Positions 1,532 through 14,883 of a stretch of 64,000 bases of DNA are shown here, in pieces (within the stretch, counting starts at the first letter, position 1; each line of letters starts with the position of its first letter). Source of the stretch: Chitinophaga pinensis (GTDB taxonomy: Bacteria > Bacteroidota > Bacteroidia > UKL13-3). The DNA is taken from NCBI GenBank assembly GCA_945861965.1, contig CAMAWM010000004.1, positions 1 through 64,000 of the forward strand, given 5' to 3'. A model generated the notes under the pieces. It ran no database searches, was not told the DNA's origin, and worked only from the letters and a program-made list of their open reading frames with translations. Position numbers and translations under genes: made by a program.

Positions 1532-1792
1532 ACACGAACAAAAAAATCATCCAGGAGTTACTTTCAACCCAATACACCGCTAACAGACGAGCAAAAAGCG
1601 AAGAATAAAGAAAAATCAAAAACACGAGCAAGAGTAGAACACATATTTGGCTTTATGGAACAAAGCATAAATGGATTATTTATACGCTCAATTGGAATAG
1701 TGCGAGCAACGGGAATAATAGGACTTATCAACTTAACCTACAATTTATTGGGGTTAATACAGGTACTAAAAAACCGTAAGATTAGATACTAA
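1532..1792 (+). pseudogene. C-terminal remnant of an IS5-family-type DDE transposase
   Basis: Frame ending TAA 1790-1792 reads ...NTPLTDEQKAKNKEKSKTRARVEHIFGFMEQSINGLFIRSIGIVRATGIIGLINLTYNLLGLIQVLKNRKIRY*; the RARVEHIFGFM...RSIGIVRAT..I.L.NLTYN pattern is typical of the IS5-type transposase C-terminus. No N-terminal part is present. Confidence 0.8.
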
Positions 1793-1824: not shown

Positions 1825-1857
1825 TTTGTTGACCGAATAAACTATTTGTTATTTTTG
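1825..1857 (+). promoter_or_regulatory. Candidate Bacteroidota sigma-ABfr type promoter (TTTG - 21 bp - TATTTTTG)
   Basis: TTTG at 1825-1828 and TAnnTTTG match at 1850-1857, 36 bp upstream of the 1894 ORF. Confidence 0.4.
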
Positions 1858-1893: not shown

Positions 1894-3651
1894 TTGTTTT
1901 TTGAAATGTTTTTAGAAAAAAATATTTTTAGAACCCACCCAATAGCTATTAAAAATATAATAAAATTCTTATTAATGCTAATAACTTTTATTTTTTTGCC
2001 TAAATTTAGTGTTGGGCAAGAAACAAAATCGAAATGGAAACTTGTTGGTAATATTGGGCTTTATGGTGATTTTTATTCCATGGAGTCTGATACTCCAGGA
2101 GCAGTAGCTGCTCGCAGGCCAAACAGCATGGAAAGACTTGTTGTAAATTCAACTATTACGTACGGTAAATTTTCAATGCCAATTTCTATGATGCTTTCAG
2201 GTGGTCAGTACAGTGTAGTTTTGCCTCATTTGCCAGAAGGAAATTTAATAGATTATATCAAAAACCCAATGAATAGAATTGGAATTGCACCTAAATATAA
2301 ATGGGCGCAATTGCTTTTGGGAACGCAAGTTCCGCAATATTCTGAGTTAAGTGTTGGCGATTTACCAGTGTTTGGAGCAGGAATAAATTTAACTCCAGGC
2401 AAATTTCGTTTTTCAGCTTTTGCAGGAACTTCGCAATTGGCTATTGATGAAAGCACAACAAAAAATATAAAAGGTGTTTATGCTCGAAATATTTTTTCAG
2501 CTAAAATTGGGTATGGAAAAGAGGACGGAACTCATTTTTATATTATCTCATCCATAATGAAAGACGATACCAATTCATTAAAAACAAAACCAGTAAACAC
2601 TTTACCACAAAAAGGTATTTTAAGTTCAATAGATTATAAACTTAAAATCGGGGAACAATATGCAATAAAAGGTGAAATAGCCGGCTCTGCATTTACCAGA
2701 GATATAAGAAGCAAGCCCATTTCGTTTGCTAATATGCCAATTGATATTCCTTCTGAAATTTTTAAAATTCAAGAATCAAGTAGATTTGATTATGCAACAG
2801 TTTTAAGCATAGTCAAAGAAGGAAAGATTTTTAACTTAAAATTATCAGGTAAATATATTGGTGACGGTTTTGTGCCATTAGGATTTCCATTTATGCAAAC
2901 CGATAGATTGGAAGTAAGCATTGACCCTGGCTTTAATTTACTTAAAAACAAAATACAATTTTCTGGTTCTATTGGCACGCGCTACAATAATCTTTCTGGA
3001 GCAAGAGCATCTACTACCAGGCAAACTATTGGATTTGCCAATTTGAATTGGCAGTTTACCGAAAGTTTTTCATTAGCTACTTCTTTCAGTAATTTCAGTT
3101 TTAGAAATTCACTTAGAAACGATACTTTTCGAATAGATATGGTAACTTTATCTTGGAGTGCAAGTCCAACTTATATATTTACAACTCCAAATAATATGCA
3201 TATTTTTACGGTAATGTATGCTCAAAATACTTTTGCAGATTACAATACAATTAGTGGTGCTTTAAGCAATAATGATTCTCGAAATGCTTCAGCCTCTTAC
3301 TTGCTTTCTAAGGTAAAAAATCCTTTAAGCATCAGCACCATTTTAAGTTATTTTGATAATAATACATCATTTGGTTTACTTACAACTAATGCTGCAAATT
3401 TAACTTTAAGTTACAAATTTTTAGACAAAAAACTCAGCACCAGTTCGGGAATTACGTATAGTGACAATAGTGTGAACAGTCTTGCTTCGGGGTCGCAAAT
3501 AGTAACAGTATTGGGTATGAAATATACTTTAAAAAAGAAAACTGATTTTTCGGTAAACGGCTCTATAAACCTATATAAATATGGTGCTGACAGACCTGGA
3601 ATTTCATATCGCGAAAATCTATTACGTACATCAATAACTTATAAATTTTAA
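1894..3651 (+). CDS. Uncharacterised secreted protein, probably an outer-membrane beta-barrel
   Basis: 585 aa; N-terminal hydrophobic segment; alternating beta-rich sequence; terminal aromatic residue (...LLRTSITYKF). The true start may lie downstream of 1894. Confidence 0.6.
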   Translation: MFFEMFLEKNIFRTHPIAIKNIIKFLLMLITFIFLPKFSVGQETKSKWKLVGNIGLYGDFYSMESDTPGAVAARRPNSMERLVVNSTITYGKFSMPISMMLSGGQYSVVLPHLPEGNLIDYIKNPMNRIGIAPKYKWAQLLLGTQVPQYSELSVGDLPVFGAGINLTPGKFRFSAFAGTSQLAIDESTTKNIKGVYARNIFSAKIGYGKEDGTHFYIISSIMKDDTNSLKTKPVNTLPQKGILSSIDYKLKIGEQYAIKGEIAGSAFTRDIRSKPISFANMPIDIPSEIFKIQESSRFDYATVLSIVKEGKIFNLKLSGKYIGDGFVPLGFPFMQTDRLEVSIDPGFNLLKNKIQFSGSIGTRYNNLSGARASTTRQTIGFANLNWQFTESFSLATSFSNFSFRNSLRNDTFRIDMVTLSWSASPTYIFTTPNNMHIFTVMYAQNTFADYNTISGALSNNDSRNASASYLLSKVKNPLSISTILSYFDNNTSFGLLTTNAANLTLSYKFLDKKLSTSSGITYSDNSVNSLASGSQIVTVLGMKYTLKKKTDFSVNGSINLYKYGADRPGISYRENLLRTSITYKF

Positions 3652-3655
3652 CGCC

Positions 3656-6600
3656 ATGAAAAAAATACACATCATTATTTTATTCTTTACATGTTTGCTT
3701 TCCAGCAATGTTTTTTCACAAACATTTCAGTTATTGATGACACCAAAACCATCACCCTATTTTTCGGATTGGAGCAACAGAACTGAAACTGCTAGAATGA
3801 CTGTTAACAACACTTCAGGTGTTTCATTTGATTGTAAAATAAAAACACAATTATTTAATAGTAGCGGAACTTTAGTAGGCGAAACCGATTTTTCTAAAAT
3901 GCCAATATTAACAATTGTTCCAGGCATTTCTCAGTTCAATGCAGAAGATATTTATCCGGTTTCGGCCATTCAATATTATGGAAATTCAGTAGTGGCAATA
4001 TTACAAACAGGAAGAATTCCAGATGACAATTACCGATTATGTTCCAATTTAATGAATCCAACAACTGGAATTGCATTAAATGGATTGCAACCACAATGTG
4101 CCATGTTTACTATTGCAGCATATCAAGCGCCTGTATTAATTGCACCTCGTGAAGAAGAAATAATTCCTTTAAATAATATTAGAGGAATGCTTTTTAGGTG
4201 GACACCAGTTACACCAACTCCAAATTTTATTGTAACTTATAAATTACAAGTTTGGGAAATTTTAGATGGACAAGATAATGTAACTGCACTTAGAACCAAT
4301 CAACCTATTGTAGATAAGGATTATAAAGGTCTACTACAAACACAATGGCCTGTTGATTTTGCATTGCCAGAGGGAGGAAAGAAATATGTGTGGAGCATTA
4401 CTCCATTTGATGACCAAGAACGAAAAATGGTAGAAGGAATTGGAATGGCAGAACCAAAAGGATTTGAAATTGGTGTTATGCATTTACGAAGTTCATTAGT
4501 TGTCAATCCTCCCGATACCAACACAATTGATTCAACCATTGTTGTTATAAGCGATTCGGCTGAAATTGGAGATACCATAAGAGTTGGATTGAATGGAGAA
4601 TTTGCGTTAAAAGTATTACAAATTACCAAAGAAACTGATGGTTCATTAACCGGAAAAGGCAGCGTTAGAATTCCGTGGCTGAAAACATCCATTGCAGTTG
4701 ATTTTAAAAAAATAAAAATTGATTCCTCAAAACATTTGATAGCTGGCGGTGTTACCAGCACTAAAAGCGATACTAGTTCCACCTCAATTACTGCATATCC
4801 ATTGGCTTGGGGACAAAGTTGGCTGGCTGGTCCGTGGGTTGCTAATAAAACTGATGGGCTAATGAATTGGTCGAATAATGTGGCAAATAATCAAATTGCT
4901 TGGGTAAATAATAATGTGAATTCGGCTCCCTATATTGATTACAACGCAAATATTGCAACGCCAGCCATTCCAAATAGCAATCCTTTAAAAATGCCTTTTG
5001 GCATTCAATTCAATAATGGGAATGATAAATTAGTTATTACTGAATTTATATTTAAACCAAACGAATCGAAAGTAAATTTTTTGGCTCAGGGTGAATTTTT
5101 TAAAAATGGTGTTACTCATAAATTAGGTTTTGCAGGTAAATATTTTAAAATACATCCAAATCAAATTGACTTTAGTGCTGGACGTGTTGAATTGGTAGAA
5201 GATGTGAAAATTCCAAATGTGTCTTCAAATCCAAAAATGAAATTTTGCTTTAAAAAAGGAACTACCAATTCGGGTTGTTATATTCAATGGGCAAACACTG
5301 GAATTACAGATATAAGCATAGGAATGGATGTGAAATTTACCAGAGATTGGTTTCTTCCAGTGCCAACTGCGCCCGATTCTGTGGTGGCTACTTTAACTGG
5401 AAATGCCACCAATATGCACGATATTATTTTAACTGGTTCTATGCCAAAGTGCGAAATTGTTGGCTGCAATGGTTTAAAATTAAATCAAGCATTGACAGTT
5501 TCAATTGATCTTTCTGATATTAGAAATCCAACAAACATGGTATTTCCAACCAATTATCCAGATACAACTGATGGCGTTGCTTGGCAAGGTATTTACATAA
5601 AAACATTGTCAATGCTAATGCCCGATGATTGGAAATCGGACCCTAATTCCAATGCGCCAACTATTGCTGCTTCCGATATAATTATTGACGACATGGGTTT
5701 AACTACCAATGTGAAAGCCTATAATGTACTTACTTTACAAACAGGACAAGTAGCTAATTTAAGTGCAAGTATTGATACCATAAAAATTTCAATAGTTTGT
5801 AATTCATTGGTAAATGGAAAAGTGATGGGAAAAATGGTATTGCCGCTAAGCAATCAAACAATGCAAAATACTTTAAAATATACTGCATCGTTTTCACTGG
5901 CTAATATTGGCACTAGTTTCCAAATGGTAATACTTCCAACTCAACCCATAAGCAATGATATTATGAAAGGAAGTATGACTTTAAGTCCAACTTCAAATAT
6001 TACCGCTACCAAAACGCCTAATTTGTTGACTTTGTCAATTCTGTTAAATGGTTTTTTTAAATGGGATCACCCTGATTTGGCAGCTCCAGTTATCAATTTA
6101 ATAAATTCACCACCAACGCGAGCATTGGGAATAAAAGGCGTAAAAATGGAAATGGCATTTGAAAATTTGAGCTTAACTTATAAAAATTATTCCGTTCCAA
6201 ATGTCGATTCTACATCCTTCAATGTAGGTAATTGGAGCTTTGCAAGTCCCCAAAAATTCTTGGCAAATTTTCCAGTAACTATTAAGCATTTTCGATTTAA
6301 AAAGTTACCAACTGTTCCTCCTGCAGATGCAAATATGAAAGAAGTTTTTAGAGGTCAAATTTTGATTGACATCATTGCAAATTTAACCGAAGATATTGGT
6401 GGAATGACAACTGTAGGTTTAGCATTTGCGCTAGAGCGCAATAAAACTACTAAAGGTTTTACCCCAAAATATAAAGGTGTTTTTGTAGATAGTATTGCTG
6501 TACATGCCGACTTATCGGCTGTAAAAATAAATGGTGCTTTACTTATGTACGACAATGACCCTAAGTTTGGTGATGGATTTAAAGCTACTTTAGGTGTTAC

Positions 6601-8506
6601 ATTTACAGCAGTTTCTTTGCAAATAAATGCTTTGGCGCAGTTTGGAAGCACTACTTATTTAAATAATGGTCAGTTTTACAGGTATTGGCGAGTAGAAGCC
6701 GATGTGAAATTACCAGTTGGCATTCCATTTTTAACAGGTGTAGGTTTTTATGGTTTTGGTGGGGGTGCATTTTATAACATGAAGGCCAATTCAATAGCAA
6801 GTATTGCCAATCCTGGAAGTACTGCTTATACCTTTGACCCCAAAAAAGGCTTGCTCGGATTTCAAGTAAAAGCTACTGTGGCAACCATGCCTAAATTTGA
6901 AACATTCAATACCGATGTAGAGTTAATGGCATCATTTACTTCATCTGGTGGTATTACTCAAATTGGCTTTTTAGGAAACTTTTGGTTGGCAGCAAAACTA
7001 GCTGAAAGACCAGCTTCAAAAATAAAAGGCAGTGTAATGGTTGATTATATTTTTACCGAAAAAATATTTAACATGGCAGCAGGGTTGCTAATAAATATTC
7101 CTGATGTAATTGTAACTCCTGCGCCAATTGGATTTACAATGAACATAAATGGTACTACTAATTTATGGTATTTTAAATGCGGTGTTCCTGATGCTCCAAA
7201 CCAAGTAAATGTGTTCAATATTCCATTGTATTCTTATCTTATGTTTGGTAATAATATTCCACCTCCAAGTGGTTTTACAACAAGGTTTAGTAACAATTAT
7301 TTTTCTGCAACTGGCTATTATCCAAGTGCTGGCGGAATTGTTGCAACGAATGGTGTAAACAATGATTCGAAAACAGCCAAAGGTTTTGCTACTGGCGTGG
7401 GGATTGAATTTTCAAAGGATATGCACCAAGAACTTTATACCGGAGTATGTAGAAACTGGAGTATTGATGGGAATTTATTAGCAGGAGCTGAGTTGAATTT
7501 GTCATTGATGCAGCAAAATGGTTGCATTGGAATAAACGGCTATAGGGCATCTGGGAATTTAGGACTTTATGCAAGTGTGGCTGCTACTATTAATGGCAAT
7601 GGTTATAGATATAATTGTGACAATAAATCAATCAATTTATTTACCATAAAAACGGGTGCGTGGATTGAAGGTAAATTTCCAAATCCTGAATATATAGCTG
7701 GTAGTTTATATGCCGATATTGATTTATTTAACCACTTGTGCCAGGTTACTTATAGCAAATATTTTGAAAAAGGAACTAATTGCTTTGGAACTGAAGTAGT
7801 AACTGCAAATGCAGCACAACAAGACAAAGCAGGAGATTTAAAAAATAAACTAATTCAATATGTTTCTCCAACCATGCGCTATAATTTTCCTATTATATCA
7901 ACCAACAATGTAAAGTATGCCTTATTACCAAACCAAGTGTTTGACGTAGCCGAAAATCAAGGTGATGGAACCATAAAAAACAGAACTTTTAAATTAGTTG
8001 TTACTACCTCATTGGCTGTTCAAAATAATGGTTGGGTAAATAAAATAATACAAACTAAAGCTAATAACATGGGCGAATTCATGTATTATATGAAACCTCC
8101 TTTAAATACCACTGTTGTGCAAGGAAGCACTCAGTTTGTGGCTACCATTCCAAGCACGGTAAATACTAATAATGGGAATAATTTTGTTGCTGCAAATGGT
8201 ATACTTCATATTAATACTATTACGACTCCATTGCCACCGCCACCTACCCCAAATTATCCAAATCCAGTTGTTGATCCTATCAATAATTTAACAGCTAATA
8301 TGGAATATAAATTTATAGTAACAGCAACTTTAATGGAATATAGTGTGAACCATATACCTGGGCTAGGAGGAAGAGGAGATGGCACTGATGTATTGATGTG
8401 GGCACCAGCAAAAAATAGGACAGGAGTTGTAATATCCGAAACAAAAACTGTTTTATTTAGAACGGGACCAATGCCAATTTACCAAGCAAATTCTGGCAAT
8501 AGATAA
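3656..8506 (+). CDS. Very large (1616 aa) secreted protein with Ig-like N-terminal region; function unknown
   Basis: Signal peptide MKKIHIIILFFTCLLSSNVFS; beta-rich throughout; begins 5 bp after the preceding stop; no T9SS tail or transmembrane anchor recognised. Confidence 0.7.
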   Translation: MKKIHIIILFFTCLLSSNVFSQTFQLLMTPKPSPYFSDWSNRTETARMTVNNTSGVSFDCKIKTQLFNSSGTLVGETDFSKMPILTIVPGISQFNAEDIYPVSAIQYYGNSVVAILQTGRIPDDNYRLCSNLMNPTTGIALNGLQPQCAMFTIAAYQAPVLIAPREEEIIPLNNIRGMLFRWTPVTPTPNFIVTYKLQVWEILDGQDNVTALRTNQPIVDKDYKGLLQTQWPVDFALPEGGKKYVWSITPFDDQERKMVEGIGMAEPKGFEIGVMHLRSSLVVNPPDTNTIDSTIVVISDSAEIGDTIRVGLNGEFALKVLQITKETDGSLTGKGSVRIPWLKTSIAVDFKKIKIDSSKHLIAGGVTSTKSDTSSTSITAYPLAWGQSWLAGPWVANKTDGLMNWSNNVANNQIAWVNNNVNSAPYIDYNANIATPAIPNSNPLKMPFGIQFNNGNDKLVITEFIFKPNESKVNFLAQGEFFKNGVTHKLGFAGKYFKIHPNQIDFSAGRVELVEDVKIPNVSSNPKMKFCFKKGTTNSGCYIQWANTGITDISIGMDVKFTRDWFLPVPTAPDSVVATLTGNATNMHDIILTGSMPKCEIVGCNGLKLNQALTVSIDLSDIRNPTNMVFPTNYPDTTDGVAWQGIYIKTLSMLMPDDWKSDPNSNAPTIAASDIIIDDMGLTTNVKAYNVLTLQTGQVANLSASIDTIKISIVCNSLVNGKVMGKMVLPLSNQTMQNTLKYTASFSLANIGTSFQMVILPTQPISNDIMKGSMTLSPTSNITATKTPNLLTLSILLNGFFKWDHPDLAAPVINLINSPPTRALGIKGVKMEMAFENLSLTYKNYSVPNVDSTSFNVGNWSFASPQKFLANFPVTIKHFRFKKLPTVPPADANMKEVFRGQILIDIIANLTEDIGGMTTVGLAFALERNKTTKGFTPKYKGVFVDSIAVHADLSAVKINGALLMYDNDPKFGDGFKATLGVTFTAVSLQINALAQFGSTTYLNNGQFYRYWRVEADVKLPVGIPFLTGVGFYGFGGGAFYNMKANSIASIANPGSTAYTFDPKKGLLGFQVKATVATMPKFETFNTDVELMASFTSSGGITQIGFLGNFWLAAKLAERPASKIKGSVMVDYIFTEKIFNMAAGLLINIPDVIVTPAPIGFTMNINGTTNLWYFKCGVPDAPNQVNVFNIPLYSYLMFGNNIPPPSGFTTRFSNNYFSATGYYPSAGGIVATNGVNNDSKTAKGFATGVGIEFSKDMHQELYTGVCRNWSIDGNLLAGAELNLSLMQQNGCIGINGYRASGNLGLYASVAATINGNGYRYNCDNKSINLFTIKTGAWIEGKFPNPEYIAGSLYADIDLFNHLCQVTYSKYFEKGTNCFGTEVVTANAAQQDKAGDLKNKLIQYVSPTMRYNFPIISTNNVKYALLPNQVFDVAENQGDGTIKNRTFKLVVTTSLAVQNNGWVNKIIQTKANNMGEFMYYMKPPLNTTVVQGSTQFVATIPSTVNTNNGNNFVAANGILHINTITTPLPPPPTPNYPNPVVDPINNLTANMEYKFIVTATLMEYSVNHIPGLGGRGDGTDVLMWAPAKNRTGVVISETKTVLFRTGPMPIYQANSGNR

Positions 8507-8518
8507 TTTAAAATAAAT

Positions 8519-10609
8519 ATGAAAAAATCAATCAAAATATTCATCATCCTACCCATAATTTTATTGACTATCAATAGCTATGCGCAAGACAATATTGCAA
8601 AATGCAAAATAGCTGGTGTAGCCCGATTTACCAATATTGGAGTCGAACTTAGATGGTTTCCCAGCAATAAAACAATTCTACGATTAGGATTTGAAAGAGG
8701 ATTTACCCTTGAAAGAAGTGACTTTGGAACTAACAAGTTTGAAACTATTAGAACAATAAAAGCTTTACCAAAAGACAAATGGGATTTACTTATTGGAACT
8801 GAAACAAATTTAGAAACAAAATCGAACTTGGAATTGGCAGCCGATTTTCTTTTTGTGGAAGCAATAAAAGAACAAAAAAGCATAAACTTAGATGAAGGAA
8901 TTGCGGAGCTAAATGAACAAAAAGGAAAAGAAGACATGGTTTATGCAGTGTTTGTGTTAACAGCAATAAAAGACTCAAAAGTGGCGGAAGCATTAGGTTT
9001 GGGTTATGCAGACAAAACTGCAACGGATGGAAACACTTATACATATCGCATTAAATTAAATGGTAAATCGGCAATTTATGAAATAGAAGATGGACTGATA
9101 AGTGTTAAAGCTAGTTTGAATCCAGATAAATATAAAAATGAAGTTTTTGTTTATCCTGGCAATAAACAATTGTCGTTTGTTTGGTCAGCTAAACCAGAAC
9201 TTTCGGGCTATTTTGTAGAAAGAAAAGCAGCAGGAGAAAATGCTTTTTTGCAATTAAATACTGTCCCAATTTATGCCTCTACTGGTGGTGGATTTGAAGG
9301 AATTGCTAATGGTGCTTATTTAGACGATTCATTGCAAAATTATACCACTTATTATTATCGTTTTTTTGGTTTAAGTGCCTTTGGCGAAAAAATTATGTTT
9401 GCCGAAACCAAAGGAATGCCGAGAGATTTAATCCCTCCAAGTAATCCAATTATTTACCAACCCAAACACACAAAAACCAAGGAAGTATTGGTAAATTGGG
9501 ACTTGTATGGCGATATAAGCGATTTGAGAGGATTTATTGTAGCTCGTTCTGATAGAGATACAGGAAATTTTACCATTATAAATAAAACAATTCTTTCAAG
9601 TAAAGCTAGGAGTTATAGCGATTCTACCTTTAATGCAGAAGGCATCAATTATTATATGGTTTATGCCATGGATACTGCTGGGAATATTAGTTATTCTTAT
9701 CCTTCTTATGTAGTTATTATAGACAGTACACCACCCACCCAGCCTCAAATTGTGAATGCAATAATTGATAGTTTTGGTATTGTAACTTTAACTATAAAAC
9801 AAGGGAAAGAAAAGGACATAAAAGGCTATAAATTATTTAAAGCCAATAGCCCCGAACACGAGTTTTCAGTTATTGAAGAGGGTTATTTAAACGATAAATG
9901 GGATACTAATGCTGTTAAATTGCTTTTCTACGACACTGTAACTTTGCAATCGCTTACTCCTAAAATTTATTACAGAATAAAAGCATTGGATTTCAACTAC
10001 AATCAATCTGTTTTTTCGGAAATTGCTGTGGTAAAAAGGCCAGATACTATTCCTCCTGTTACCCCTGTAATTAACAATGTGTTGGTGAGCGAAAAACAAA
10101 TAGAAATACATTTTGTGCCTAGCGAAAGTGTGGATGTAAAAGAACATTTAGTGTATAGAAAAATTGATTTTGCAGCCGATTGGGAAATCATTTTAAAGTT
10201 TGATTCAACCCAATATTCCATGATTGATACCAATGTAACCACAGGCGTAATGTACTATTATACCCTAAGAGCCAAAGATGAAAGCAATCTTTTTTCTGGC
10301 TATGCAAGTCCTGTTTCTGGCAAAACTTATGACAGTGGAATTAGGCCTCTAGTTCAAAATTTTTCAGTTTCTATAGTTAATAAAAAAGCAGTACTCAAAT
10401 GGGATTACCCTGACATTGGAAAAGATGTATTATTTGTTATTTATAAATGGAATGGAAATGGGCAGTTAACCCAATACGCTAATACTGCAGACAAAACATT
10501 TACCGATAATAATACTAAAAAAGAAAACTCATACTCCATTAAAGCGCATACTACTGATGGCGGAAAATCGAAAATGAGTGAAGAAGTTTATATAAAAATG
10601 GAAGAATAA
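8519..10609 (+). CDS. Secreted protein with tandem fibronectin type III-like domains
   Basis: 696 aa; signal peptide; repeated linkers DLIPPSNPIIYQP, DSTPPTQPQIVNA, DTIPPVTPVINNV followed by V.L.W/YKLF.../Y..RA.D..GN type FN3 segments. Confidence 0.75.
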   Translation: MKKSIKIFIILPIILLTINSYAQDNIAKCKIAGVARFTNIGVELRWFPSNKTILRLGFERGFTLERSDFGTNKFETIRTIKALPKDKWDLLIGTETNLETKSNLELAADFLFVEAIKEQKSINLDEGIAELNEQKGKEDMVYAVFVLTAIKDSKVAEALGLGYADKTATDGNTYTYRIKLNGKSAIYEIEDGLISVKASLNPDKYKNEVFVYPGNKQLSFVWSAKPELSGYFVERKAAGENAFLQLNTVPIYASTGGGFEGIANGAYLDDSLQNYTTYYYRFFGLSAFGEKIMFAETKGMPRDLIPPSNPIIYQPKHTKTKEVLVNWDLYGDISDLRGFIVARSDRDTGNFTIINKTILSSKARSYSDSTFNAEGINYYMVYAMDTAGNISYSYPSYVVIIDSTPPTQPQIVNAIIDSFGIVTLTIKQGKEKDIKGYKLFKANSPEHEFSVIEEGYLNDKWDTNAVKLLFYDTVTLQSLTPKIYYRIKALDFNYNQSVFSEIAVVKRPDTIPPVTPVINNVLVSEKQIEIHFVPSESVDVKEHLVYRKIDFAADWEIILKFDSTQYSMIDTNVTTGVMYYYTLRAKDESNLFSGYASPVSGKTYDSGIRPLVQNFSVSIVNKKAVLKWDYPDIGKDVLFVIYKWNGNGQLTQYANTADKTFTDNNTKKENSYSIKAHTTDGGKSKMSEEVYIKMEE

Positions 10610-10621
10610 ATTATAGCATAA

Positions 10622-10652
10622 AAAAAGCGCACTTAAATTAAGTGCGCTTTTT
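10622..10652. terminator. Bidirectional intrinsic terminator
   Basis: Near-perfect palindrome AAAAAGCGCACTTAA-A-TTAAGTGCGCTTTTT between convergent genes, with flanking A and T tracts on both sides. Confidence 0.9.
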
Positions 10653-10668: not shown

Positions 10669-13600
10669 TTATTTTACTACACTAATTTTTTTAACAAATG
10701 TTTTGTCGTCAATTTCAATATGAATAAAATAAACACCTGATGATTGAACACTTAAATCAAGCACTTTTTCAGTCATATCGTTTTTACCGATAACAACACT
10801 TTTAATTCTATTTCCTAAAATGTCTAACACTTCAATTTTCATCTCAGATTTAAGATTTCCCAACGATTTCAATTTAAGTTTTCCATTGTTAGGATTAGGA
10901 TAAACTGCCAATACATTTTCTGCATTCATCACATCTTCAACACTTGTATTTGCAATTACATTAACCATTCGAGTTGCCTCTGCAGATCTGTTTCCTGAAA
11001 GGTCAGTAACTTTGTAGTTTACATAAAACAAACCTTCTTCGTCACCAAAATAATTTCCACCTGCATTTTTCGGAAGAGTAGATGTAATAATCAAATAAGG
11101 ACGAATTTGAGCATCGGTATTGTAATTATCAATCAACTCAACTCCGGGTTCTGAATATTCTTTCCAACGTAAAAGCATAAATGGATTTGTTCCAAGTATT
11201 TTAACTGTAGGAGCAATTTTGTCTAAAACTTTAACCACACGCATAATGCTGTCTTTATTTCCAGAACCATCTGTTGCAGTGTACCAAATATAATAAGTAC
11301 CCAACACATTAATATTTAGATTTGTGGTTTTATTTACAGCTATTGAATTTTTTGGCCAATAGTTATCGTTAACCAAAACACCTGGATCAACATAATTGTT
11401 AAATACATTTACTTCGGCTATTGCTGGTCCGTTTAATTGAATGGTAGGTTTAATAATATCTGAAACAATAACCTGCAAATAATAGGTTGGAGAAATATTT
11501 CCTGAACCATCAGTTGCTCTATAAGCTATATAGTATGAACCTACATTGTTTACATCAATCAGACCTGAATTTGTAAGAGTTATTGTATTCCAATAATTAT
11601 CTGTCCAGTTGATTGCAGACATTGCATCAAACGATTGATTTACCTGATGATAATATGGATTTCCATAACGTGCAGTTATTATTGGAGCGATTGTATCTTG
11701 AACAATAACAATTCTAGTAATTTCTGCTTTGAATCCAAATGCATCTGTAATTGAATATTTAATGATGTAGTTTCCTAAAGATGAAACATTCAAATTACTA
11801 ATAATTACCACTTGATTTGAAATATCATTGTTCAAATTATCTTTAGCAATATAGCCAGGTTCAACATACGAAGTGTTTACATTGGTTCTGTAAATTGCAC
11901 CACCAAGCAAACTAATACTTGGTCCCGTTCTGTTTAATTCAACAAATACAGTTCTATATGCCGTGTCTGATGTATTACCATATAAATCTTGAACTATGTA
12001 TTTTAAATAGTATGGACCAACTACAGTTGTATCTACTGTTCCAAAAACAATAAAGCGACTGCTAATATCTCCTTCTAAATTGTCAATTGCAGTAACTCCA
12101 GGTTCAATATATGCTTTGTTCTTTTCCGTTCTAAAAACAGAACCTCCATTAAGCGCAATGGTTGGTTTAATTGTATCAAATCCAAATGCAACTGTGAAAT
12201 CTTTAAACATTCCCATAGTTGCATAAACAGAATTTAATTGAGATGAGTTACCTAAGTCAACTGCTACACGCATTCTGGTAGTTCCAACTCTTTGATTAGC
12301 TCCAATTACAAATGAATCTGTACGTAGCAATGTATATGCATTGATTTCATTTGTTACTAATTCATTGGTTTCAAAAGCTGCATTCAAATTAAAATCAATC
12401 CACACTTTTCTATCCATTGCACTTGCAGTTCCTGGTCTATTCATTTGAATAAAATATTTAACTCCTCTAAACAAAGTAGTACTTTGATTTCCGTAAACAT
12501 ATTGATAAGTTGGTCCAATAGGATTTGGGAATAAACTATCAATTTGATTGAGTCTTACTCTTGAAATTCCAATACTTCCATCTCCCACTTGATCAACTGC
12601 CATACTACTACTTGGAGTTTGATAAGCTGCTATACAAATGTATGCTGTTTTGGTTGTTGAATCTGATCCAAAAGAATTCGATGCAACTAGTTTAGCTGTA
12701 TAACAAGTTTGAGCTGTGAATCTAATTGTCGGGTTTTGACTTGTTGAATTGGTTCCATTTAAATATTGTACGGTTGTAGGAACAAATGACCATCTCCACT
12801 GGTTAGGTCCATGCAAACTCTTATCAATCATTTTAAATGTGTCAGTATTGAACCCCGCAATTTTATCTGAGGTAAATCGAGCTTCAGGTTTTTGAGTTAC
12901 TGGTAAAAATACAATATTCTTGCATATAGTATCTACGCCTACACAATTATAAGCTACCAAACATATTTTACGAATTGATGGGATCGTAACTATATAGGTT
13001 CTTGTAGGACTTGCGCTAACAGAATCAAACAAATTGTTTCCATCTGTATCCCAACTGTATTGCATTAATACACCTTCCGATTTATTAAACAATGTTATTG
13101 GTGTAGTTGAATAAACAGTATCAGCTATATTAAATGCAGCAATCGGTTTTGAATAGCTTGCTGGTTTCATATCCCAACGAATAATGAAACCTGCCGAATC
13201 GTATCCTGGAGGAACAGCAGTTCCGCCTGTTTTGAATTTAGCAAAAATTGCTCTTCCACCACGAATAACTTTTTTATTATTTGCTAATGGTAATTGCCCA
13301 CCTGGACTTGCGCCAATAGTTGTTAATAATGGAGCATTTGCATTTATTCCATTGAAAAATTGTAAGCTATCGCTTGGCAACATTTTTAATCTTTCAACAT
13401 ACAATGTAATTGAATCAGCACAAGGATTGATTAAAAACCCTGGGCAAGTTGCAACTTGAGATCTTGTATAAGAAAAATTCGGTCCAGATGGCCCATAAAT
13501 ATACCCTTCTGCATCTTGGCTTCCAAATGATCCTGTACCACTACACATATTGTAACCATTGACTACTTTTATATAATCTGTTTTACAAATAGAATCCGTT

Positions 13601-14883
13601 CCTCTAGCATTCCAAACCCGTAAACAAATGGTATAAATGCCAGGATCAAAACCAGTGAATTTAGGATTGGCTACTGAACTGTTTGGATCAAAATAATTAG
13701 GTGCAAATGGCATTTGACTACACTTGTTACAAGGAGGGAAATATTCCCACTGCCACTGGTTTGGACCATTGTCTGAAAGATCAATAAATGAGCTTTGATC
13801 GGCAAATCCAACAATCTTTTTGAACGAAATGAAATTTGCAGTGGGTACTCTACTTGGAGTATCAACCCAAATATATTTTGTGATTGAATCTCGTAATGAA
13901 TCGGATTTCAAAAAGTTTACTGCTAATAATCTTAGTTTCCACCATCCACGTTTATCAAATGTATAATTTAAGTTATTGGTATATTTAATTGTATCAATAT
14001 ATCGCTGTGTGCTAAATTTAACATTTTGACGGAAATAACCTGGATTTAATGTTGTATCAGCAGTCGGCACATATTCTTCAACATCCCAATAAACTCTGCT
14101 TTGGCTGCTACTTGTATTGATAATAATTTGTGGACTATTGATCCAAACTGTGTCCATTGGTCCTGCTGTTGTATCACTTACTCCTTGGAAAAAATTTGCA
14201 ATTGGTGGAAGTGTTGGACCACTGCCTCCAGTATAAGTAAATTGCATATCAGCTCTTTGGGTATAAATCCCTCCACCAGTAATTCCACAATACGAACCAG
14301 CTCCATCAGCCCAACTGTGCAAAGTGCTATTAAAAGTTGTAGCTGTATAAGTAAGTTGTGGCGACCATGAATAGCAAACTGAACCCGAAGGTGTATTATC
14401 ATGACATGCATCTACCAAAAGATTTGAAACTCCATCCCAAACAAAGGGCGTGTTAAACATGTGTTGGTTCCAGTTTACAACAGATGTAGTATAACTTACT
14501 GGGTTTAATACCGTTGTAAGTCCAGCATTGTCAAAAGCTGTCAAAACTGTTGCTGAACTATTTTTTAGTTTTATAGTAAAAGATAAATGCACACCACCGC
14601 CCGGACAAGTAGAACCAGCGCACGAAACACTTGGCACATAAAACGCTATTGATGTAAGTGTTTTTGATCCAGTTAAACCTGCTGCATTCAACTCGCTTGC
14701 AAGAATTAGGTATTGAACACGCGAAGATGTATACCAAGCACCGTACGGTGTTGGCCCACTATTACAGGCCAAATTAGTTATACCGGTACCAATTGTAACT
14801 GTTTGAGCATTTACAATGTTTGAAAAACTAATTGATAGCCCAAACAAAAATGCGATTGTTTTAAGTGTATATTTTTTCATCAT
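10669..14883 (-). CDS. Multidomain secreted protein (PKD-like, GEVED-like, tandem DUF5011/HYR-like domains) with T9SS type A C-terminal sorting domain
   Basis: 1404 aa; signal peptide; PKD-like segments (ANFISFKKIVGFADQSSFIDLSDNGPNQWQWEY); GEVED-like DRKVWIDFNLNAAFETNELVTNE; five repeats of the xxYVEPGxxAxDNxxxDIS type; C-terminus VYPNPNNGKLKLKS...GVYFIHIEIDDKTFVKKISVVK. Confidence 0.85.
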   Translation of the reverse strand: MMKKYTLKTIAFLFGLSISFSNIVNAQTVTIGTGITNLACNSGPTPYGAWYTSSRVQYLILASELNAAGLTGSKTLTSIAFYVPSVSCAGSTCPGGGVHLSFTIKLKNSSATVLTAFDNAGLTTVLNPVSYTTSVVNWNQHMFNTPFVWDGVSNLLVDACHDNTPSGSVCYSWSPQLTYTATTFNSTLHSWADGAGSYCGITGGGIYTQRADMQFTYTGGSGPTLPPIANFFQGVSDTTAGPMDTVWINSPQIIINTSSSQSRVYWDVEEYVPTADTTLNPGYFRQNVKFSTQRYIDTIKYTNNLNYTFDKRGWWKLRLLAVNFLKSDSLRDSITKYIWVDTPSRVPTANFISFKKIVGFADQSSFIDLSDNGPNQWQWEYFPPCNKCSQMPFAPNYFDPNSSVANPKFTGFDPGIYTICLRVWNARGTDSICKTDYIKVVNGYNMCSGTGSFGSQDAEGYIYGPSGPNFSYTRSQVATCPGFLINPCADSITLYVERLKMLPSDSLQFFNGINANAPLLTTIGASPGGQLPLANNKKVIRGGRAIFAKFKTGGTAVPPGYDSAGFIIRWDMKPASYSKPIAAFNIADTVYSTTPITLFNKSEGVLMQYSWDTDGNNLFDSVSASPTRTYIVTIPSIRKICLVAYNCVGVDTICKNIVFLPVTQKPEARFTSDKIAGFNTDTFKMIDKSLHGPNQWRWSFVPTTVQYLNGTNSTSQNPTIRFTAQTCYTAKLVASNSFGSDSTTKTAYICIAAYQTPSSSMAVDQVGDGSIGISRVRLNQIDSLFPNPIGPTYQYVYGNQSTTLFRGVKYFIQMNRPGTASAMDRKVWIDFNLNAAFETNELVTNEINAYTLLRTDSFVIGANQRVGTTRMRVAVDLGNSSQLNSVYATMGMFKDFTVAFGFDTIKPTIALNGGSVFRTEKNKAYIEPGVTAIDNLEGDISSRFIVFGTVDTTVVGPYYLKYIVQDLYGNTSDTAYRTVFVELNRTGPSISLLGGAIYRTNVNTSYVEPGYIAKDNLNNDISNQVVIISNLNVSSLGNYIIKYSITDAFGFKAEITRIVIVQDTIAPIITARYGNPYYHQVNQSFDAMSAINWTDNYWNTITLTNSGLIDVNNVGSYYIAYRATDGSGNISPTYYLQVIVSDIIKPTIQLNGPAIAEVNVFNNYVDPGVLVNDNYWPKNSIAVNKTTNLNINVLGTYYIWYTATDGSGNKDSIMRVVKVLDKIAPTVKILGTNPFMLLRWKEYSEPGVELIDNYNTDAQIRPYLIITSTLPKNAGGNYFGDEEGLFYVNYKVTDLSGNRSAEATRMVNVIANTSVEDVMNAENVLAVYPNPNNGKLKLKSLGNLKSEMKIEVLDILGNRIKSVVIGKNDMTEKVLDLSVQSSGVYFIHIEIDDKTFVKKISVVK

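What the first reader, a model, noticed from the sequence alone, without database searches (positions are those of the whole stretch)
1894..10609. Candidate undescribed three-gene envelope system: beta-barrel protein + 1616-aa secreted protein + FN3 repeat protein
Seen: three co-directional genes with 4-bp and 12-bp gaps, a plausible promoter upstream (TTTG-21-TATTTTTG) and one strong terminator at 10622-10652, so a self-contained operon. All three products carry export signals, none has a recognised T9SS tail, and none gives a functional family by eye. Inference: an outer-membrane barrel, a giant beta-rich protein and an FN3 scaffold encoded together suggest a surface assembly or an export/adhesion apparatus. 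This is the best candidate here for something undescribed.
Basis: partly seen in the sequence, partly recalled or inferred. Interest (0 to 1): 0.62.

Follow-up and report, generated by a model that had tools for sequence, protein, structure and literature searches.

The report
Toxin-free TANFOR surface operon with barrel
Three neighbouring genes encode an outer-membrane barrel, a giant exported protein and a scaffold protein; the set recurs across the Bacteroidota and is the kit that some relatives use around a known toxin family, except that here no toxin is attached, and the barrel is a candidate for the missing partner that brings these proteins to the cell surface.

Summary
The three-gene operon is real and the trio recurs across the phylum, but it is not wholly undescribed. 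The N-terminus of the 1616-aa protein is a divergent TANFOR domain, the delivery domain of a Bacteroidetes polymorphic-toxin class (Jana et al. 2020, PMC7073777); FN3 neighbours were already reported. New here: (1) the 560-aa barrel, which has no Pfam or NCBIfam model, is a near-obligate TANFOR partner. In 396 genomes, 88 of 89 with strong TANFOR hits encode it, no strong barrel hit occurs without TANFOR, and 101 of 119 barrel genes lie within 10 kb of a TANFOR gene. (2) The rest of the giant protein is a second conserved module ('body'); in Flavobacteriaceae-like toxin loci it is a separate gene beside the barrel. (3) Outside that group 0 of 36 TANFOR C-termini match a Pfam toxin, against 3 of 11 inside it. 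Best reading: barrel, TANFOR and body form an outer-membrane export or display platform with toxins as lineage-specific cargo; the window carries a toxin-free form. Binding, export route and structure are inferred; both AlphaFold models failed. T9SS co-presence is uninformative: SprA is also in 65 of 66 comparison genomes without strong TANFOR hits.

The parts
1825..1857 (+). Bacteroidetes-type promoter string TTTG-21-TATTTTTG (candidate only)
   Evidence: 8 such strings in the window, 10 expected by chance
1894..3651 (+). P1: 560-residue outer-membrane beta-barrel candidate, TANFOR partner; true start probably an ATG at 1906 or later
   Evidence: ORF; family alignment; terminal F in 50/60; phylum-wide linkage to TANFOR
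3656..8506 (+). P2: 1616-aa exported protein, TANFOR domain fused to body module
   Evidence: ORF
3713..4525 (+). TANFOR domain of P2 (divergent; residues about 20-290)
   Evidence: hhalign to TANFOR toxins 99.0%, E 3.4e-18; profile match 3707-4519, E 1e-96, seeds include the window
4490..8500 (+). Body module of P2 (residues about 279-1615), beta-rich, distantly similar to DUF6603 in its middle
   Evidence: HMM hits in other TANFOR proteins and in separate genes; DUF6603 comparison
8519..10609 (+). P3: FN3-repeat exported protein
   Evidence: ORF; fn3 in 7 of 13 family members; 70 of 71 P3 genomes have TANFOR
10622..10652 (+). Intrinsic terminator hairpin between convergent genes
   Evidence: 14-bp stem and T run

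Best explanation
The operon is a toxin-free TANFOR surface system. All three proteins cross the inner membrane by Sec. P1 folds into a dedicated outer-membrane barrel that recognises the TANFOR domain at the N-terminus of P2 and carries or anchors P2 at the outer membrane. The 1300-residue body of P2 forms an extended beta-rich structure exposed at, or spanning, the outer membrane, and the FN3 protein P3 is an accessory scaffold of the same assembly. In Flavobacteriaceae-like relatives the same kit, with the body as a separate gene next to P1, serves TANFOR-toxin fusions; here no toxin is fused and the assembly is structural (adhesion or envelope function). Shown: TANFOR homology, co-inheritance of P1, TANFOR and P3 across the phylum, the fused and split forms of the body, and the absence of known toxin domains. 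Inferred: that P1 binds TANFOR, the export step, surface exposure and the adhesion role.
For: TANFOR homology: hhalign 99.0%, E 3.4e-18; an HMM iterated from the window family alone recovers every TANFOR toxin tested. Co-inheritance in 396 genomes: P1 in 88, TANFOR in 89, both in 88, Fisher p 1.5e-88; 101 of 119 P1 hits within 10 kb on the same strand of a TANFOR hit, about 1 expected; P1 upstream in 70 of 80 pairs within 2 kb. P3: 70 of 71 genomes also have TANFOR. Of 60 P1 neighbourhoods 44 have TANFOR, 39 directly adjacent, 25 have TANFOR and P3. Body fused to TANFOR in 21 of these loci, in a gene without a TANFOR call in 8. P1 also pairs with short TANFOR proteins of about 290-530 aa, so TANFOR plus P1 looks like the minimal unit. 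No toxin: 0 of 36 C-termini match a Pfam toxin, 3 of 11 in the Flavobacteriaceae-like group do; the window C-terminus is conserved in its nearest relatives.
Against: No structure: both AlphaFold2 models are meaningless (mean pLDDT 27 and 26), so barrel and binding are unproven. P1 is not related by profile to PorP/SprF, the known partner barrels. 30 of 146 TANFOR hits have no P1 hit within 20 kb, some of them near contig ends. The P1 cut-off (about 1e-24) was set after seeing the list; weaker hits are mostly 800-aa proteins in genomes without TANFOR. Genomes in one family are not independent, so the Fisher p overstates the evidence.
Confidence: 0.5

Rival explanations
1. P2 crosses the outer membrane through the T9SS translocon SprA/Sov by a signal that is not a known CTD, and P1 only receives and anchors it afterwards, as SprF does for SprB.
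For: SprA is in the window genome and in 80 of 80 TANFOR genomes. Toxin loci hold SprB/CTD proteins next to P1, as published. SprF binds and anchors its neighbour-encoded substrate SprB (PMC9143113).
Against: P2 and P3 have no type A or B CTD. SprA is also in 65 of 66 genomes without a strong TANFOR hit, so its presence says nothing. P1 is not a PorP/SprF relative (hhalign 1.9%).
Confidence: 0.3
2. P2 works inside the envelope, for example as a periplasmic or membrane-bridging beta-rich protein hung from the P1 barrel, and is never displayed outside.
For: The body has enriched alternating hydrophobicity (z 3.8), and its middle is distantly similar to DUF6603 (73.9%, E 2.8e-5, against at most 2.9% for controls).
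Against: Relatives fuse TANFOR to nuclease-type toxins (PMC7073777), which have no use in the periplasm.
Confidence: 0.12
3. P2 is a polymorphic toxin whose C-terminal toxin domain is simply not in the libraries.
For: The TANFOR class is defined by toxins and many members have C-termini of unknown activity (PMC7073777).
Against: The C-terminus is conserved with the body in the nearest relatives rather than swapped, no small immunity-like gene follows, and 0 of 36 C-termini in this group match a toxin.
Confidence: 0.06
4. The three genes are neighbours by accident, a porin next to two unrelated surface proteins.
For: Family members are patchily present in the window's own family (16 of 64 genomes match P2).
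Against: Genome-level and locus-level association across the phylum.
Confidence: 0.02

Closest known systems
TANFOR-domain polymorphic toxins (TIGR02542; Jana, Salomon and Bosis 2020, PMC7073777)
   Same: N-terminal TANFOR domain on a large Sec-exported protein, FN3 gene beside it, Bacteroidota with T9SS
   Different: No toxin domain, no immunity gene, window protein does not score on TIGR02542 itself, body module fused, barrel partner not mentioned in the paper's text
SprF-SprB and PorP-PG1035 (T9SS type B substrates with a cognate barrel, PMC9143113)
   Same: Large exported protein encoded next to an outer-membrane barrel that may anchor it
   Different: P1 is about 560 aa and unrelated by profile to the about 300-aa PorP/SprF family; P2 has no type B CTD
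DUF6603 proteins (PF20248)
   Same: About 250 columns of the body align with a shared FYGFGGG-type motif; one TANFOR protein of 2006 aa hits the model weakly, E 6.5e-4
   Different: No hit of the window protein to the model; function of DUF6603 unknown and no paper found

Membership tests
TANFOR domain (homology) | N-terminal TANFOR domain by profile comparison | tested here: met
   hhalign 99.0%, E 3.4e-18; iterated HMM
TANFOR domain (curated model) | Score over the TIGR02542 cut-off | tested here: not met
   No hit for the window protein; 9 of 18 family members do match, and no genome of 396 passes the cut-off
TANFOR polymorphic toxin class | C-terminal toxin domain | tested here: not met
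   No Pfam hit in P2 or its last 320 residues
TANFOR polymorphic toxin class | Immunity gene downstream | tested here: not met
   The next gene is the 696-aa FN3 protein, then a convergent gene
TANFOR polymorphic toxin class | Sec signal peptide | tested here: inconclusive
   Clear by eye in the sequence; no predictor run
TANFOR neighbourhood | FN3 gene in the locus | tested here: met
   P3; 70 of 71 genomes; COG3401 enrichment published
T9SS substrate | Type A or type B CTD | tested here: not met
   No TIGR04183 or other CTD hit in P1, P2 or P3
PorP/SprF barrel | Homology to PF11751 | tested here: not met
   No Pfam hit in 12 members; hhalign 1.9%
Outer-membrane beta-barrel (P1) | Barrel fold | tested here: inconclusive
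   Terminal F and alternation support it; model failed
DUF6603 | Homology of the body | tested here: inconclusive
   Profile-profile 73.9%, controls at most 2.9%; direct HMM search negative

The most novel reading that the evidence does not exclude
P1, with the body module, is a dedicated outer-membrane export or display machine for TANFOR proteins, independent of T9SS: in effect an unrecognised two-partner type secretion route of Bacteroidota, used by toxins in some lineages and by structural surface proteins in most.
Probability: 0.25. Interest if true: 0.85.

Novelty: new variant of a known kind. Interest (0 to 1): 0.52.

Why it matters
How TANFOR toxins leave the cell is an open question: the 2020 paper could only propose T9SS. 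A barrel encoded beside them in almost every genome gives a concrete gene to delete and a concrete pair to fold. It also suggests that toxin delivery is a special use of a wider, mostly toxin-free surface system, and it names two protein families without models.

Tried and rejected
Barrel and long-protein scans of viral contigs found no relative, and the family alignment was too variable to scan with. PDB profile searches found nothing for P1 or P2. PorP/SprF membership of P1 was tested and rejected. T9SS co-presence was tested as evidence and rejected as uninformative. The promoter was tested and is not above chance. TIGR02542 alone would have missed the family. The 'bits=0' column printed is a script error and was ignored.

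Full report
Observation. The three ORFs, gaps and terminator hairpin are as described. The TTG start of the first gene is probably too far upstream and the promoter motif is at chance frequency. No product matches Pfam at E<=1, and none carries a T9SS sorting domain.

Identity of the giant protein. P2 (3656-8506) has no hit to TIGR02542, but its N-terminal 270 residues align with those of bona fide TANFOR toxins at 99.0% probability, E 3.4e-18. An HMM built only from the window family's N-termini and iterated recovers all TANFOR toxin proteins tested, and 9 of 18 members of the aligned family do match TIGR02542 (some of these were found through that model). TANFOR proteins were described in 2020 as polymorphic toxins with FN3 genes enriched nearby (PMC7073777). 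The curated model therefore misses most of the family: it rings in 12 of 396 genomes where the wider profile rings in 108.

The barrel is the new partner. A profile of 12 P1 proteins and a profile of 14 TANFOR domains were run over the same 396 genomes of the phylum. At E about 1e-24 for P1 and 1e-19 for TANFOR, P1 is in 88 genomes, TANFOR in 89, and 88 are shared (Fisher p 1.5e-88; not corrected for relatedness). 101 of 119 P1 hits lie within 10 kb on the same strand of a TANFOR hit, about 1 expected by chance; within 2 kb P1 is upstream in 70 of 80 pairs. The P1 cut-off was chosen after seeing the list; of the 14 next weaker P1 genomes checked, only one has a TANFOR hit, and the weaker hits examined are mostly 800-aa proteins of another kind. 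Seed sequences of both profiles include five genomes picked through TANFOR, too few to produce the result. The 2020 paper's text does not mention a barrel.

P3 and architecture. P3-type FN3 proteins are in 71 genomes, 70 of them TANFOR genomes. In 60 P1 neighbourhoods, 44 have TANFOR, 39 immediately adjacent, 25 have both TANFOR and P3; several are cut by window ends. The order P1-TANFOR-P3 is commonest; TANFOR-P3-P1 also occurs.

The body. Residues 279-1615 of P2 define a second module. It is fused to TANFOR in 21 of the 60 loci and lies in a gene without a TANFOR call in 8, some of those truncated or weak. In the Flavobacteriaceae-like loci L097, L098, L103 and L106 a 1558-1592-aa body protein directly follows P1, while the TANFOR protein is elsewhere in the locus. 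This fused/split arrangement suggests that P1, body and TANFOR act together. The body's middle is distantly similar to DUF6603: 73.9%, E 2.8e-5, against at most 2.9% for reversed, block-shuffled and unrelated profiles.

Toxin or not. None of 36 C-termini outside the Flavobacteriaceae-like group matches a Pfam toxin; 3 of 11 inside it do (DNase, LHH, TNT). The window C-terminus is conserved in its nearest relatives and no immunity-like gene follows. So the locus is a TANFOR system but not a member of the toxin class as defined.

Mechanism. P1 is most likely an outer-membrane barrel (terminal F in 50 of 60; alternation) that is the cognate partner of TANFOR. It could be the exporter, or an anchor after T9SS export, as SprF is for SprB (PMC9143113). 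P1 is not related to PorP/SprF. T9SS presence cannot decide: SprA is in 80 of 80 TANFOR genomes tested but also in 65 of 66 genomes without strong TANFOR hits (that comparison set was not random). The deciding experiment is surface exposure of the TANFOR protein without P1 and without T9SS.

Limits. No usable structure was obtained. Functions are inferred from co-inheritance and homology.

Noticed in passing
window 1580-1792 (+): Remnant of a DDE transposase C-terminus just upstream of the operon (PF01609, E 2.4e-5).
   Followed up: yes
window 10669-14883 (-): Convergent 1404-aa T9SS type A protein with bacterial Ig-like and GEVED domains, sharing the hairpin with the operon.
   Followed up: partly
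window 3677-8506 against L026 (G041 contig C2): Third-codon-position identity varies from 48 to 97% along P2 between the window and a genome of another genus, a mosaic that suggests recombination.
   Followed up: partly
L111 8944-11391, L100 8108-10567, L109 8285-10744: In Flavobacteriaceae-like genomes P1 carries an extra C-terminal part of about 250 residues, apparently helical.
   Followed up: no
G076, G097, G194 and others: TANFOR domains in open frames of about 4000 to 6400 residues.
   Followed up: no
L036, L037, L040, L041: Recurrent locus: short TANFOR-like protein next to a 450-790 aa protein, two small proteins and a 2200-2400 aa protein without Pfam hit.
   Followed up: partly
L042, L043, L038: Body-like stretches in about 1250-aa proteins without TANFOR; in L042 and L043 without an obvious signal peptide.
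   Followed up: no
396-genome sample: T9SS SprA is near-universal in the comparison genomes (65 of 66), so the published argument that over 95% of TANFOR genomes have T9SS carries little weight.
   Followed up: yes
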